53,844 nucleotides of DNA from Lachnospiraceae bacterium. GTDB taxonomy: Bacteria > Bacillota > Clostridia > Lachnospirales > Lachnospiraceae. The first letter of the stretch is position 1; the number at the start of each line of letters is the position of its first letter. The notes beneath the pieces were generated by a model, which searched no databases, was not told where the DNA came from, and saw only the letters and a program-made list of their open reading frames with translations. Below are positions 21,518 to 28,112 of this stretch, one piece after another. The position numbers and the translations under genes were made by a program. The stretch lies in assembly GCA_017526985.1 (NCBI GenBank), contig JAFXQR010000023.1, positions 1 through 53,844 on the forward strand, given 5' to 3'.

Positions 21518-21562
21518 AAAAAAGAGTATCAGTCAATATAACCCAGAAGGGAGATGAATCGA

Positions 21563-22417
21563 TTGAGCAAGCAGCAGAGAAGGAACATCATCATTGTGTC
21601 GATTCTGTTTCTGGCAGCGATCATTGCAGGAATTGTTATGATGCCGCAACCGGAAAAGCACGAGACGATCAAGGCTGCCATGCGTGACGCTGTTTTGCAC
21701 GACGAGAACAAGATCGATTTCTTTGGTTTTGCCGTGGATCCGTCCCTGGTATCCGGCTACATCGTTACGGGAGTGTTGCTATTCCTTGCGCTGCTGATCC
21801 GGATCTTTGCCATCCCGAAATTTAAGATGGTACCGGGGAAGTTTCAGTTTCTGATCGAGCAGTGGGTAGGCATCTTTGACGGGCTGGCAAAGACAAACTC
21901 CCCCCATAAAAACGGCGCGTTGGGCGCGTATATTTTCGGCGCGGGTACCTATATCTTTGCGGGTACCATGTTTGAATTCTTCGGCATTCAGGCCATCACC
22001 ACCGAAGGGCACAGTATTTCTTTGCCGGCACCGCTGGCGAATATCAACGGTGCGATCTGCATGGGCTTTTTGTCCTATCTGTTTATTTTATCCGGCGGTA
22101 TTCTGGTGAATAAGATCAAGGGCGTGGGAAAAACTTTAAAAGAGTTTTCCCTGCCGGTTTCTATGACATTCCGACTGTTCGGCGCACTGCTTTCCGGTAT
22201 GCTGACCACGGAGCTGGTGTACTATTACATCAACTTAAGTTTTGTATTGCCGGTGATCGTGGGGCTTTTGTTTACGGTGCTGCACGCATTGATCCAGGCC
22301 TATGTCCTGACCATGCTGACCAGCGTATATTACGGAGAAGTGACCGAGGTCAGTGAAAAGAAAAAGGAACCGAAAAAGAAGAAAAAAGACATTGAAGTCA
22401 CAGAGAGCGCAGTATAA
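21563..22417 (+). CDS. atpB: ATP synthase Fo subunit a
   Basis: The 284-residue membrane subunit forms the ion half-channels against the c-ring. The essential Arg is at 204 in PVSMTFRLFGALLSGML, and Gln245 in HALIQAYVLTMLTSVYYGE matches the last conserved helix. The C-terminus ends with a lysine-rich tail (EKKKEPKKKKKD). The TTG at 21563 is preferred because AGAAGGGAG lies 9 nt before it; an in-frame ATG at 21554 directly abuts that site. It is first in the atp operon; no atpI precedes it. I see no clear promoter in the 45 nt after the activase gene, so reading through from there or an internal promoter is possible. Confidence 0.96.
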   Translation: MSKQQRRNIIIVSILFLAAIIAGIVMMPQPEKHETIKAAMRDAVLHDENKIDFFGFAVDPSLVSGYIVTGVLLFLALLIRIFAIPKFKMVPGKFQFLIEQWVGIFDGLAKTNSPHKNGALGAYIFGAGTYIFAGTMFEFFGIQAITTEGHSISLPAPLANINGAICMGFLSYLFILSGGILVNKIKGVGKTLKEFSLPVSMTFRLFGALLSGMLTTELVYYYINLSFVLPVIVGLLFTVLHALIQAYVLTMLTSVYYGEVTEVSEKKKEPKKKKKDIEVTESAV

Positions 22418-22463: not shown

Positions 22464-22835
22464 ATGAGACAGTTAAAGAAAATGGCAGTTATGTTGGCAG
22501 CAGTGATCCTGCTCATCGGTGCGGTGGCTTCCGTAAGCGCATTGCAGGCAAAAGCGGCGGATACTGCGGAGACGGCGGCAAGCGCGGAAGCAGAAGCGCC
22601 GGCAGATAACAGCACCGGAATGAAAGCGCTGGCGGCATCCATCGCCATTGGTCTGGCAGGTATCGGCGGTACCATCGCGATGGGTATGGCGATCGCAAAA
22701 TCCAACGAAGGTGTGGCACGCCAGCCGGAAGCGGCAGGTAAGATCCAGACGCAGTTGATGCTCGGTCTGGTATTTATCGAGACGGTTGTTATTTACGCAT
22801 TGATCGTAGCCATCCTGATCGTCTTTGTATTATAA
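22464..22835 (+). CDS. atpE: ATP synthase Fo subunit c with N-terminal extension
   Basis: The 123 residues contain the normal two-helix hairpin at about 53-123, with the RQP loop at 86-88 and the ion-binding Glu106 in VFIETVVIYAL. Subunit c usually has 70-90 residues. Here about 50 residues are added in front: a basic start, a hydrophobic segment (8-26) and ALQAKAA, which looks like a signal peptidase site, then an Ala/Glu-rich stretch. Thr107 and Tyr111 fit the polar set of sodium-binding c subunits, but the helix-1 Gln of those proteins is Met here, so ion choice is open. The gene starts after GGAGGG with good spacing and lies between atpB and atpF. Confidence 0.95.
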   Translation: MRQLKKMAVMLAAVILLIGAVASVSALQAKAADTAETAASAEAEAPADNSTGMKALAASIAIGLAGIGGTIAMGMAIAKSNEGVARQPEAAGKIQTQLMLGLVFIETVVIYALIVAILIVFVL

Positions 22836-22872: not shown

Positions 22873-23367
22873 ATGCCGTTGGGAATAGATTTTACACAGA
22901 TATTGCTGCATTTTTTCAATGTGATCATACTGTTTGTCGGCTTGTATATCCTGTTATACGCGCCGGTGAAGGCTTTTATGCAGAAACGCAGCGACTACTA
23001 CGCGGATCTGGAGAAGGATACCAAAGCAGCGCTGGAAGAGGCGAAAGCAAAAAAAGCAGAATATGAGGAAAAGCTGGCAGCTGCTGATCAGGAGATCGAA
23101 GAGAAACGCAAAGCTGCCAACAGTGAGATCGCGGCGATGAAGCGGGAACAGAACGAGGCTGCCAGAGAGGAAGCCAGAAAGATCCTGGAGAGCGCAAGAG
23201 AAAACGGTGAGAAGCAGAAGATGATGATCATCAGCGGTGCCCGTGAGGATATTGCGCACATGATCGAGGAGGCAGCGCGTAAGGTAATGGCGGGAGAAGA
23301 AGCCGGCGATCCTTACGAGGATTTCCTGCGGAATGCGGAAAGGAGCCACGCAAATGGCCACAAGTAA
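22873..23367 (+). CDS. atpF: ATP synthase Fo subunit b
   Basis: The 164-residue peripheral stalk subunit has one N-terminal membrane span (about 8-30), then a long charged helix rich in Ala, Glu and Lys that forms the dimer with its partner b, and an end (DIAHMIEEAARKVM) like that which contacts delta in other enzymes. GGAGG precedes the start. The next gene begins 14 nt before its stop, so there is no room for a separate atpH here. Confidence 0.96.
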   Translation: MPLGIDFTQILLHFFNVIILFVGLYILLYAPVKAFMQKRSDYYADLEKDTKAALEEAKAKKAEYEEKLAAADQEIEEKRKAANSEIAAMKREQNEAAREEARKILESARENGEKQKMMIISGAREDIAHMIEEAARKVMAGEEAGDPYEDFLRNAERSHANGHK

Positions 23368-25108
23368 GATACCAAAAGCCGTTCTTTATGCTGCAGTCGA
23401 GCCCACGGCGCAGCAGCAGGAGGGGCTTTTACAATTTCTGGAAAAGAAATACGGCAAGGCGTATGAGCTGGACTGGTGCGAGGATGAGAGTACCGGCAAG
23501 GGCTTTCGGCTGGTGGTGGGAGACGAAGTGTATGATCACACCAGGGAAGGCCGCTTTTTGCAGTTAAAGGAGAGACTGGGTGAGCTGCTGCTGGCGGATG
23601 AGGAAGAGGATGTGATCACCCTGTTTAAGTCCTCCATTGACAGCTGGAATGCCGAGACGGTTGCGGAAGAAGAAGGCACGGTACTTTCCGTAGGGGACGG
23701 TATCGTATTTATTGATGGTCTGGGCGGTGCGGAATACGGGGAGATCGTGGTATTTGAATCCGGCGTAAAGGGAATGTTTCAGGACATCCGGCAGGATACC
23801 ATGGGCGTGATCCTGTTTGGTGACGACAGTGAAGTGCGTGTGGGCAGCCGTGTGCGCCGGACCAAAAAGACGGCAGGTATCCCTTGCGGAGATGCGTTTC
23901 TCGGTCGTGTGGTCAATGCGCTGGGCGAGCCGATCGACGGCATGGGTCCCATTGTAGCGGATGATTACCGTATCGTGGAGGTACCGGCAGCCAGCATCAT
24001 CGAACGCCAGTCTGTGGACACGCCGATGTATACCGGCTTGCTTACGATCGATTCTATGTTTCCCATCGGACGGGGACAGAGAGAGCTCATCATCGGGGAC
24101 CGGCAGACAGGCAAGACCACCATTGCGGTGGATACGATATTGAATCAAAAGGGCAAGGATGTGATCTGCATCTATGTGGCGATCGGACAGAAGGCCGGTA
24201 GTATCGCGCAGCTGGTCGGAAACTTAAGGAAAAAGGGCGCGATGGATTACACGGTGGTGGTCAGTGCGACGGCCAGTGAACCGGCACCCATCCAGTATAT
24301 CGCACCGTATGCGGGAACATCCCTGGGTGAATACTTTATGCATAAGGGTAAAGATGTGCTGATCGTATACGATGATCTGTCAAAGCACGCCATAGCCTAT
24401 CGTGCGTTATCCCTGCTGCTGGATCGTTCTCCGGGACGTGAGGCCTATCCCGGTGATGTATTTTATCTGCACTCCCGACTGTTGGAGCGTTCCGCGCATT
24501 TGTCGGATGCACTGGGGGGCGGCAGCATGACGGCGCTTCCCATTGTGGAGACGCAGGGTGGGAATGTGTCGGCCTATATTCCGACCAATATCATATCCAT
24601 CACGGACGGGCAGATCTTTTTGGAAAGCGATCTGTTCTTTGCGGGACAGAGACCTGCTGTAAATGTCGGTCTTTCCGTATCCCGTGTGGGTGGCGCGGCA
24701 CAGACCAAGGCAATGAAAAAGGCGGCAGGTTCGATTCGTCTGGATCTGGCGCAGTACCGTGAGATGGAGATCTTTACACAGTTTTCCAGTGACCTGGATG
24801 AAACCACCCGACGGCAGTTGATGTATGGACAGGGACTTATGCAGCTGCTTAAGCAGCCCCAGGGACATCCGTTCGCGTTGCATGAGCAGGTGGTGATCCT
24901 GGTGGCGGCGACAGCGCATGTGATGCAGGATGTGGATCCGCAGAAGATCCTGGATTTCCGTAAGGACCTGCTGGCATATTTTGAACAGAAAAAAGCATCC
25001 CTGATGCAGCAGATCGATGCAGAGGGAACATTATCGGATGAACAGAAGGCGGAGATCATAGAGACGGCAAAGGAGTATCTTGAGCTGTGGCAAACGGCAG
25101 GGAAATAA
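23354..25108 (+). CDS. atpA: ATP synthase F1 subunit alpha with fused delta (OSCP) C-terminal domain
   Basis: The 584 residues exceed normal alpha (about 500-510) by an N-terminal block. Residues 8-80 align with the C-terminal domain of subunit delta: AVLYAAVEPTAQQQEGLLQF fits the VTSA...L..QQL.KI pattern, and GFRLVVGDEVYDHTREGRF fits the signature G-x-I-x-x-G-D-x-V-x-D-x-S-x-x-G-R-L. Alpha proper starts near 85 (EEDVITLFKSSIDSWN), with Walker A GDRQTGKT (248-255), GRVVNALGEPIDG and PAVNVGLSVSR with the arginine finger Arg444. AAAGGAG 8 nt before the ATG decides the start; the gene overlaps atpF. The helical N-terminal domain of delta, which holds alpha's N-terminal helices in other enzymes, is missing. 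The fusion is in frame without any sign of frameshift. Confidence 0.95.
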   Translation: MATSKIPKAVLYAAVEPTAQQQEGLLQFLEKKYGKAYELDWCEDESTGKGFRLVVGDEVYDHTREGRFLQLKERLGELLLADEEEDVITLFKSSIDSWNAETVAEEEGTVLSVGDGIVFIDGLGGAEYGEIVVFESGVKGMFQDIRQDTMGVILFGDDSEVRVGSRVRRTKKTAGIPCGDAFLGRVVNALGEPIDGMGPIVADDYRIVEVPAASIIERQSVDTPMYTGLLTIDSMFPIGRGQRELIIGDRQTGKTTIAVDTILNQKGKDVICIYVAIGQKAGSIAQLVGNLRKKGAMDYTVVVSATASEPAPIQYIAPYAGTSLGEYFMHKGKDVLIVYDDLSKHAIAYRALSLLLDRSPGREAYPGDVFYLHSRLLERSAHLSDALGGGSMTALPIVETQGGNVSAYIPTNIISITDGQIFLESDLFFAGQRPAVNVGLSVSRVGGAAQTKAMKKAAGSIRLDLAQYREMEIFTQFSSDLDETTRRQLMYGQGLMQLLKQPQGHPFALHEQVVILVAATAHVMQDVDPQKILDFRKDLLAYFEQKKASLMQQIDAEGTLSDEQKAEIIETAKEYLELWQTAGK

Positions 25109-25986
25109 AAAACCGCATCGGAAGTGTGCGCAATACCAGAAAGATCACGAATGCCATGTATCTGATCTCGTCGTCGAAGCTGCGCAGGGCCAGAGAGGAG
25201 CTGGCAAAGACGAGACCGTTTTTTGTGGCAACGGAGCATGAGATCAAGCGGATCTTTCAGAGCACATCGGAAGTGAGATCGCGATACTTTTATCCACCGA
25301 CCGGACCTACAAAGGCGGAGACGGTGGCGTTTCTGGTGATCACTTCGGACCGCGGTCTGGCAGGCGCATATAACTATAATGTGATCCGGCGGGCGGAAGC
25401 GGAGATCCGCAAGCGGGAAAAGGTACGCCTCTTTATCATCGGCGAATATGGGCGCAGATATTTCCGGCATCATAACGGACCGGTGGAGGAGACCTTTTAT
25501 TACACCGCACAGGATCCCACATTCCGCAGGGCCAGAGAGATCAGCAGCAAGCTTCTGACGGAATATACGGAAGGGCGTTTGGACGAGATCCGTATCATTT
25601 ACAGCGATATGGAAAACGATATGGTCTGTAATGTGAAATGTGTGCGCATGCTGCCCTTTGAGCGCAAGATGTTTCTTTCGGAAGAAGAGGCGGAGCACAG
25701 TTCGGACCAGATGTATAAGTTTGAACCGTCGGCATCAAAGGTGCTGGATCAGATGATCCCTTCCTATGTGGCTGGTTTTGTATACGGTGCGATGGTAGAC
25801 AGTTTCTCATCGGAGCAGAATGCGCGGATGAACGCCATGCATACGGCAACGCAGAATGCGGATGAACTGATGGGGGATCTGCAGATCGAATATAACCGCG
25901 TGCGGCAGTCGGCGGTCACACAGGAGATCACGGAAGTGGCATCCGGTGCCCGGGCACAAAAAAAGAAGAAAAAGAAAAAATTCTAG
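25087..25986 (+). CDS. atpG: ATP synthase F1 subunit gamma with poly-lysine tail
   Basis: The 299-residue rotor subunit starts with the N-terminal helix (REIKNRIGSVRNTRKITNAM), contains VITSDRGLAGAYN in the central domain and ends with the C-terminal helix (RVRQSAVTQEITEVASGA). That helix normally closes the protein; here RAQKKKKKKKF follows. The GTG start is 12 nt after AGGAG and lies inside the end of atpA (22-nt overlap). The tail would sit at the top of the alpha3beta3 head, near the fused delta-like domains. Its effect is unknown. Confidence 0.95.
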   Translation: MANGREIKNRIGSVRNTRKITNAMYLISSSKLRRAREELAKTRPFFVATEHEIKRIFQSTSEVRSRYFYPPTGPTKAETVAFLVITSDRGLAGAYNYNVIRRAEAEIRKREKVRLFIIGEYGRRYFRHHNGPVEETFYYTAQDPTFRRAREISSKLLTEYTEGRLDEIRIIYSDMENDMVCNVKCVRMLPFERKMFLSEEEAEHSSDQMYKFEPSASKVLDQMIPSYVAGFVYGAMVDSFSSEQNARMNAMHTATQNADELMGDLQIEYNRVRQSAVTQEITEVASGARAQKKKKKKKF

Positions 25987-27832: not shown

Positions 27833-27861
27833 TGGACAAATCCACGCGGATATGGTAAAAT
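27833..27861 (+). promoter_or_regulatory. Predicted promoter after the atp operon
   Basis: TGGACA (27833-27838) and TAAAAT (27856-27861) are 17 nt apart, with TG one base before the hexamer. A small inverted repeat (GTGGA 27832-27836, TCCAC 27841-27845) covers the -35 and could be a binding site. Confidence 0.6.
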
Positions 27862-27896
27862 TTTTTTTAACTTCGGGAAAGCAGGAGGGCATTCTT

Positions 27897-28112
27897 ATGG
27901 CAGATCTGGAAAGACAGGCAGCAGAACTGGAAACCTTGATGCATTCGTTATCTTTTGCGGATGAGGGTGCAGGTGTGGTACAGACAGCAAATACAACGAT
28001 GCGTCAGAAGGATGTAGATTTCCTGGTGGCGATCCTGCAGGAATTGCAGGGGTATCGTGAGATCGGTACGGTGGAAGAATGCCGTGCGTATAAGGAAAAG
28101 GCGCTTGGCTGA
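27897..28112 (+). CDS. Small soluble protein, unknown function
   Basis: The 71-residue protein starts MADLERQAAELETLMHSLSF. AGGAGGG 7 nt before the ATG at 27897 decides this start over an in-frame ATG at 27852 that lies in the promoter. It is acidic, helical in character and has no membrane span or motif I know. Its own promoter and a terminator downstream suggest a single-gene unit rather than part of the atp operon. Function not assigned. Confidence 0.75.
   Translation: MADLERQAAELETLMHSLSFADEGAGVVQTANTTMRQKDVDFLVAILQELQGYREIGTVEECRAYKEKALG

What the first reader, a model, noticed from the sequence alone, without database searches (positions are those of the whole stretch)
23354..25108. 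Subunit alpha of the ATP synthase carries the C-terminal domain of subunit delta
Seen: residues 8-80 of this 584-residue alpha align with the delta/OSCP C-terminal domain, including the GD-x-V-x-D-x(3)-GR core; no atpH exists between atpF and atpA, which overlap. Known: delta is a single copy whose N-terminal helical domain clasps the alpha N-terminal helices, and whose C-terminal domain binds b. Inference: with three alphas per F1 there could be three delta-like domains, so the peripheral stalk must attach in a new way, or two domains stay idle. The fused domain replaces the very helix that delta normally binds. Fusion of b and delta is known in mycobacteria; I do not recall this one.
Basis: partly seen in the sequence, partly recalled or inferred. 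Interest (0 to 1): 0.82.

Follow-up and report, generated by a model that had tools for sequence, protein, structure and literature searches.

The report
ATP synthase alpha with built-in delta anchor
A bacterium related to rumen and gut Lachnospiraceae has a second ATP synthase in which the part that holds the outer stalk is fused onto the alpha subunit, present three times in the motor, so it may carry up to three stalks and ion channels instead of one, a design recently built by engineers and suspected to exist in nature.

Summary
Residues 4-75 of the 584-aa alpha are a delta/OSCP C-terminal domain (Pfam, predicted fold, PDB searches), and the operon (a-c-b-alpha-gamma-beta-epsilon) has no atpH. 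One reader detail is wrong: the alpha N-terminal helix is kept, not replaced. The genome has a second, ordinary F-ATPase operon with a full atpH.

Such fusions are widespread in the phylum (up to 22 unnamed family codes here; named cases include Faecalibacterium and Neofamilia). In 13 of 45 fusion-bearing genomes searched, the fused gene holds the only F1 alpha and the only OSCP match, so a borrowed delta is not generally needed. Full-length delta-alpha fusions also exist; the alpha tree implies repeated fusion and repeated loss of the delta N-terminal domain. 27 of 99 fusions have no in-frame start near the alpha N-terminus, so internal initiation is not general.

The layout equals the engineered Bacillus PS3 deltaDN-alpha enzyme (Ueno 2025; [quoted passage not shown] That paper already noted a natural case in Acidaminococcus fermentans. 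Most likely this is a natural multi-stalk ATP synthase, probably not Na+-coupled. Stalk number is inferred, not measured.

The parts
21554..22417 (+). atpB, subunit a (287 aa)
   Evidence: PF00119
22464..22835 (+). atpE, subunit c (123 aa) with a signal-peptide-like N-terminal extension; Met at the position of the Na+-ligand Gln
   Evidence: PF00137 matches residues 56-119; motif survey; hydropathy
22873..23367 (+). atpF, subunit b (164 aa), single copy in the operon
   Evidence: PF00430
23354..25108 (+). atpA, delta-CTD::alpha fusion (584 aa)
23363..23578 (+). delta/OSCP C-terminal domain, residues 4-75
   Evidence: PF00213 positions 100-172; fold
23606..23650 (+). retained alpha N-terminal helix region, about residues 85-99
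   Evidence: TIGR00962 from model position 3 at residue 83; helix 87-96 in the model, low confidence
23612..23614 (+). in-frame GTG (residue 87) with purine-rich upstream; candidate internal start, not conserved across relatives
25087..25986 (+). atpG, subunit gamma
   Evidence: PF00231
25990..27396 (+). atpD, subunit beta (TTG start assigned mechanically)
   Evidence: PF00006/PF02874
27399..27830 (+). atpC, subunit epsilon
   Evidence: PF02823/PF00401

Best explanation
The fused domain is the working delta subunit of a second F-type ATP synthase. Each alpha carries a delta C-terminal domain that can bind a b2 dimer. The delta N-terminal domain, which normally sits once on the threefold axis, binds the three alpha N-termini and so limits the enzyme to one stalk, is absent; the covalent bond to alpha does its anchoring job. 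The enzyme can therefore mount more than one peripheral stalk, up to three, each with its own a-subunit on one c-ring. That would raise the ions moved per ATP and let it make ATP at a low ion-motive force, or pump many ions per ATP in reverse. Shown here: the fusion, the missing N-terminal domain, the absence of any other detected delta in some relatives, recurrent evolution. Shown by others on an engineered PS3 enzyme of the same layout: up to three stalks and doubled H+/ATP. Inferred: that the natural enzyme does the same.
For: Best PDB sequence match of the family profile is 9jc1 chain I, the engineered delta-alpha chain, E 1.7e-12 over all 109 positions. Counted from the domain hits, delta-model 175 to alpha-model 12 is 18 residues in the window and 19 in 9jc1; the median is 18 (quartiles 16-20, range 15-39) in the 66 of 82 CTD-only fusions that have a hit of my delta model. 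The engineered enzyme forms up to three stalks and a-subunits, H+/ATP 5.8 against 3.0 (PMC12229609). 13 of 45 fusion-bearing genomes have one F1 alpha and one OSCP match, both in the fused gene; 11 of the 13 are at least 90% complete. No fused locus in the rows shown has a separate delta on the fetched stretch, apart from L030, where an N gap splits the fused gene. AU tests reject one clade for all 59 fused alphas (p 3.6e-61) and one clade for the 37 CTD-only members of the second-type clade (p 6e-12), with FULL/CTD-only sister pairs. The alpha N-helix, normal docking site of the delta N-terminal domain, has diverged: identity 0.34 in CTD-only fusions against 0.65 in ordinary enzymes at alpha identity 0.7-0.8. 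PDB chain counts for the Chloroflexus aurantiacus enzyme (a 36 in 18 entries, delta 12 in 6, gamma 6 in 6) suggest two a and two delta per gamma in a natural F-ATPase.
Against: Stalk number is not measured in any natural fused enzyme that I know of. The operon has one a and one b gene, and no computation here tells one stalk from three. Full-length delta-alpha fusions keep a predicted six-helix N-terminal domain, nearly full length by Pfam (L129, profile 11-171 of 172), that evolves no faster than in ordinary delta over the columns that align; they would carry three such domains for one site, which 'fusion makes the N-terminal domain dispensable' does not explain. The alpha N-helix has diverged in these full fusions too (0.38), so its divergence is not simply due to loss of the N-terminal domain. 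The own genome has a full delta that could in principle bind. No Rnf-Nqr, Complex1_49kDa or H+-PPase match was found in the own genome, so the source of a weak ion-motive force is unknown.
Confidence: 0.64

Rival explanations
1. Single stalk: only one of the three fused domains binds the single b2; the other two stay idle. Fusion merely fixes delta to alpha.
For: One a and one b gene in the window operon and in the annotated relatives shown (L146 has its a gene in two pieces and L154 two c genes). In cryo-EM of the engineered enzyme triple-stalk particles were rare, which its authors put down to loss during grid preparation. Full-length delta-alpha fusions, where at most one N-terminal domain can sit on the axis, fit this most easily.
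Against: The engineered enzyme held about two stalks on average by SDS-PAGE and by H+/ATP. Repeated loss of the N-terminal domain removes the element said to limit stalk number.
Confidence: 0.26
2. Mixed alphas: internal translation starts or proteolysis yield plain alpha besides delta-alpha, restoring ordinary stoichiometry.
For: The window has an in-frame GTG at residue 87 with a modest Shine-Dalgarno-like stretch (duplex -5.6 against -8.2 kcal/mol at the gene start), and several relatives keep the GTG (L007-L011, L013, L014; L024).
Against: The codon is CTG, GTC, GTT, ATA, ATC or ATT in others. Of 99 fusions (window not counted), 27 have no in-frame ATG/GTG/TTG from alpha-model -12 to +16, 54 have one only with duplex weaker than -6, 18 with -6 or stronger; the median best internal duplex is -3.6 against -8.5 for the gene start, the latter taken as the best of several possible starts and so flattered. 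Proteolysis is untested.
Confidence: 0.07
3. The fused domain is a relic and the enzyme borrows full-length delta from the ordinary operon on contig C205.
For: A complete atpH exists in the genome; 32 of 45 fusion-bearing genomes searched have two or more F1 alphas.
Against: 13 of 45 have no other OSCP match and no other alpha. Residues of the delta core such as G50, D61 and R67 are invariant or nearly so in the fused domains. The alpha N-helix has diverged.
Confidence: 0.03

Closest known systems
Engineered Bacillus PS3 deltaDN-alpha FoF1 (PDB 9jc1; Ueno et al. 2025, PMC12229609)
   Same: delta C-terminal domain joined by a short linker to a complete alpha, no delta N-terminal domain, no separate delta; linker of almost the same length
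   Different: man-made; stalk number and H+/ATP measured there, not here
Natural fusion noted in Acidaminococcus fermentans, UniProt G4Q3K6 and A0A1I2C5T3 (same paper, Discussion)
   Same: delta and alpha genes fused, delta N-terminal domain missing (as described for A. fermentans)
   Different: I did not see those sequences; the relationship to the window clade is untested; full-length delta-alpha fusions are not mentioned in the passages and the Discussion that I read
Mycobacterial b-delta fusion (PDB 7jg5 'subunit b-delta'; delta/b Rosetta stone in passages of PMC5709465)
   Same: delta fused to another subunit that it touches
   Different: delta is fused to b, not alpha
Chloroflexus aurantiacus F-ATP synthase (PDB 9itj series)
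   Same: chain counts suggest two a and two delta per gamma, so more than one stalk in nature
   Different: delta is a separate chain of 157 residues; one search found no paper on it
N-ATPase (TIGR03324 'alternate F1F0 ATPase')
   Same: an additional F-type ATPase whose listed order beta-epsilon-a-c-b-alpha-gamma has no delta (passages of PMC5709465)
   Different: different gene order; P0001 scores 604 against a cut-off of 750.5

Membership tests
Natural deltaDN-alpha fused F-ATP synthase (A. fermentans type) | delta C-terminal domain N-terminal to a complete alpha in one gene | tested here: met
Natural deltaDN-alpha fused F-ATP synthase (A. fermentans type) | delta N-terminal domain missing | tested here: met
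   PF00213 matches only positions 100-172; the one other OSCP match in the genome lies in the second operon
Natural deltaDN-alpha fused F-ATP synthase (A. fermentans type) | no separate atpH in the operon | tested here: met
Natural deltaDN-alpha fused F-ATP synthase (A. fermentans type) | more than one peripheral stalk and a-subunit (predicted, not shown, for A. fermentans) | not testable with these tools
   needs purified enzyme
F-type ATP synthase | a, b, c, alpha, beta, gamma, epsilon present | tested here: met
F-type ATP synthase, ordinary form | separate delta with N- and C-terminal domains in the operon | tested here: not met
N-ATPase | alpha above the TIGR03324 cut-off | tested here: not met
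   604 against 750.5 bits
N-ATPase | order beta-epsilon-a-c-b-alpha-gamma | tested here: not met
   order is a-c-b-alpha-gamma-beta-epsilon
Na+-translocating F-ATPase | Gln in helix 1 of c (Ilyobacter Q32; numbering recalled) | tested here: not met
   Met in the window; Q in 0 of 100 c from CTD-only loci (near-copies included), 0 of 17 from full-fusion loci, 1 of 12 from fusions outside the second-type clade; Q in the own genome's other operon

The most novel reading that the evidence does not exclude
Multi-stalk rotary ATP synthases are not a laboratory curiosity but a widespread natural machine in gut and rumen Bacillota. Many cells hold two F-ATPases, an ordinary one with a separate delta and a fused one with up to three stalks and a-subunits, and so can switch the number of ions paid per ATP; others rely on the fused machine alone. 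The layout arose several times, with full delta-alpha fusions as a surviving intermediate.
Probability: 0.5. Interest if true: 0.88.

Novelty: new member of a known kind. Interest (0 to 1): 0.72.

Why it matters
The ion/ATP ratio is a basic constant of a cell's energy budget and has been taken to vary with c-ring size; the engineered enzyme shows that the number of a-subunits can multiply it. If the natural fused enzymes are multi-stalk, the ratio varies in a second way in nature, in common gut and rumen fermenters. The relatives surveyed make this directly testable: some carry only the fused enzyme, some carry both types, and some carry full-length fusions that ask what three delta N-terminal domains do on one F1.

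Tried and rejected
Internal translation start as the fix for stoichiometry: attractive in the window (GTG at residue 87), rejected as a general mechanism. Borrowed delta from the second operon: rejected as a general requirement. N-ATPase: rejected by score and gene order. 'The delta N-terminal domain decays after fusion': I expected it. My alignment filled only 61-70 of 98 of its columns on average, but Pfam aligns nearly all of it, the model shows six helices with block pLDDT 81-93, and it evolves no faster than in ordinary delta over aligned columns. I claim only that it was lost repeatedly. An Rnf/Ech-type circuit in this genome: PF02508, PF00346 and PF03030 gave no match. Papers: ten searches of an open-access library; of the five papers opened (PMC4478896, PMC5709465, PMC6131620, PMC11026938 by passages; PMC12229609 by passages, outline and Discussion) only PMC12229609 was seen to report an alpha-delta fusion.

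Full report
OBSERVATION. The ORF at 23354-25108 (+) is an alpha subunit of 584 aa. Pfam finds OSCP (delta), positions 100-172 of 172, at residues 4-75, E 4.2e-7 for residues 1-101 alone, followed by three alpha/beta domains. The operon reads a, c, b, delta-CTD::alpha, gamma, beta, epsilon without atpH; b and alpha overlap by 14 nt. AlphaFold on residues 1-117 gives four strands and two helices at 8-81, then a low-confidence helix at 87-96; the review PMC6131620 (passages) describes the chloroplast delta C-terminus as a four-stranded sheet with two helices. Rows 1-44 of the 50 Foldseek rows shown are ATP synthase entries.

SECOND OPERON. The own genome (92.48% complete) has two OSCP matches and two F1 alphas: the window and contig C205. 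C205 holds a complete ordinary operon with a separate delta of 181 aa. Its c-subunit has the Gln typical of Na+-binding rings (numbering recalled); the window's has Met there. In the survey Q is found in 0 of 100 c from CTD-only loci (84 M, 15 I, 1 L; near-copies included), 0 of 17 from full-fusion loci (17 I) and 1 of 12 from fusions outside the second-type clade (8 D, 2 M, 1 I, 1 Q); loci with separate delta gave 7 Q of 15. So the fused enzyme is probably H+-coupled; this is inference. A review passage (PMC11026938) says that butyrivibrios encode an H+- and a Na+-dependent ATP synthase, citing Schoelmerich 2020, which I did not read; I cannot tie that H+ enzyme to the fusion. Passages of PMC4478896 on butyrivibrio ATP synthase do not mention a fusion.

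SPREAD. Of the 35 same-genus genomes, own included, among the 60 searched, 24 have the fused alpha and one more (G022/L030) has it across an assembly gap that breaks the frame; in the other 10 none was found. [quoted passage not shown] alpha incomplete in L051, L061, L062), L078 carries full-length delta on alpha, and the rows shown for L080-L115 have ordinary separate delta. Order, class and phylum searches (392, 391 and 398 genomes drawn from larger groups, listings capped) and the stretches fetched after them show fusions in 22 unnamed family codes: f1, f8, f17, f28, f35, f36, f39-f43, f49, f65, f75, f76, f78, f108, f128, f138, f146, f155, f217; in f138 the delta part had no hit of my delta model and rests on length and a weak profile match. 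I give no frequency, because the listings are capped. Seventeen loci carry full-length delta-alpha; all 17 match OSCP.

IS ANOTHER DELTA NEEDED? Of 45 fusion-bearing genomes, 13 have one OSCP match at E <= 0.001 and one F1 alpha, both in the fused gene: G023, G088, G236, G255, G336, G338, G347, G354, G363, G373, G384, G396, G425; 11 of these are at least 90% complete (G023 is 77%, G354 68%). The other 32 have two or more alphas. In G002 OSCP missed the fused domain. In 20 named genomes, 9 show only the fused OSCP match, 9 both kinds, 1 only the separate one although its fusion is known, 1 none; alpha was not counted there and completeness is not given.

PHYLOGENY. In a careful tree of 89 alphas (46 CTD-only, 13 full, 30 separate), 54 form a second-type clade (100/100) holding 37 CTD-only, 13 full and 4 separate; CTD-only L191, L192, L196-L200, L202 and L203 lie outside it. 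Full/CTD-only sister pairs: L123/L127 100/99, L125/L141 100/96, L134/L145 100/98, L138/L128 96/81; one full/separate pair, L189/L195, 100/97. Holding all 59 fused alphas together is rejected (p 3.6e-61), as is holding the 37 CTD-only rows together against the 17 other rows of the second-type clade (p 6e-12). The groups were defined by architecture, but a first tree had been seen, and long branches are present. The reading is repeated fusion and repeated loss of the delta N-terminal domain; splitting of a fusion in the few separate members is not excluded.

CONSTRAINT. At alpha identity 0.7-0.8, the alpha N-helix is 0.65 identical in ordinary enzymes (86 pairs), 0.38 in full fusions (66 pairs) and 0.34 in CTD-only fusions (940 pairs); the delta N-terminal domain is 0.32 in ordinary delta and 0.34 in full fusions over the columns that align. 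So the helix has lost its old constraint in both fusion forms while the N-terminal domain of full fusions is kept; the model of one full fusion has six helices there. This does not fit a simple decay story and is left open.

INTERNAL STARTS. See rival 2: 27 of 99 fusions have no candidate start, and positions differ between relatives.

MECHANISM AND PRECEDENT. The closest solved sequence is 9jc1 chain I, the engineered PS3 deltaDN-alpha chain, matched over the whole profile, with a linker of 19 residues against 18 in the window (counted). Ueno et al. 2025 (PMC12229609; passages, outline and the whole Discussion) deleted the delta N-terminal domain because it sits on the axis and limits the enzyme to one stalk, fused the rest to alpha, and obtained up to three stalks and a-subunits with H+/ATP 5.8 against 3.0. 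They name A. fermentans and two UniProt entries as natural cases and call a multi-stalk enzyme in A. fermentans highly likely. PDB chain counts for C. aurantiacus suggest two a and two delta per gamma. I therefore think a natural multi-stalk enzyme most likely; the number of stalks in the window's enzyme is not shown.

WHAT IS NEW. The kind is known from one Discussion. New here, as far as the ten paper searches go: its spread over Clostridia and other groups of the phylum, its role as sole F-ATPase in some genomes and as a second one beside an ordinary enzyme in others, the full-length delta-alpha forms, and the repeated origin.

Noticed in passing
window 22464-22835; c-subunits of related operons: The c-subunit has a signal-peptide-like N-terminal extension of about 45 aa. 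From first start to the RQP motif the median is 88 residues in CTD-only loci and 35 in full-fusion loci.
   Followed up: partly
L122, L129, L151, L152: Gamma in these full-fusion operons matches the gamma profile in two pieces, suggesting an insertion of about 30 residues.
   Followed up: no
L130 (G424): The fused alpha is 756 aa from its first start, with some 80 residues beyond the alpha match at the C-terminus.
   Followed up: no
G018 contigs C104 and C120: Two equally scoring copies of the fused alpha; the genome is listed as 8% contaminated.
   Followed up: no
window 27852-28112 (+): 86-aa ORF right after atpC without a Pfam match.
   Followed up: no
own genome G000: No match to Rnf-Nqr (PF02508), Complex1_49kDa (PF00346) or H+-PPase (PF03030) in a 92.5% complete genome, so what drives its two F-ATPases is unclear.
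   Followed up: partly
PDB 9itj series: Chain counts suggest two a and two delta per gamma in the Chloroflexus aurantiacus enzyme.
   Followed up: partly
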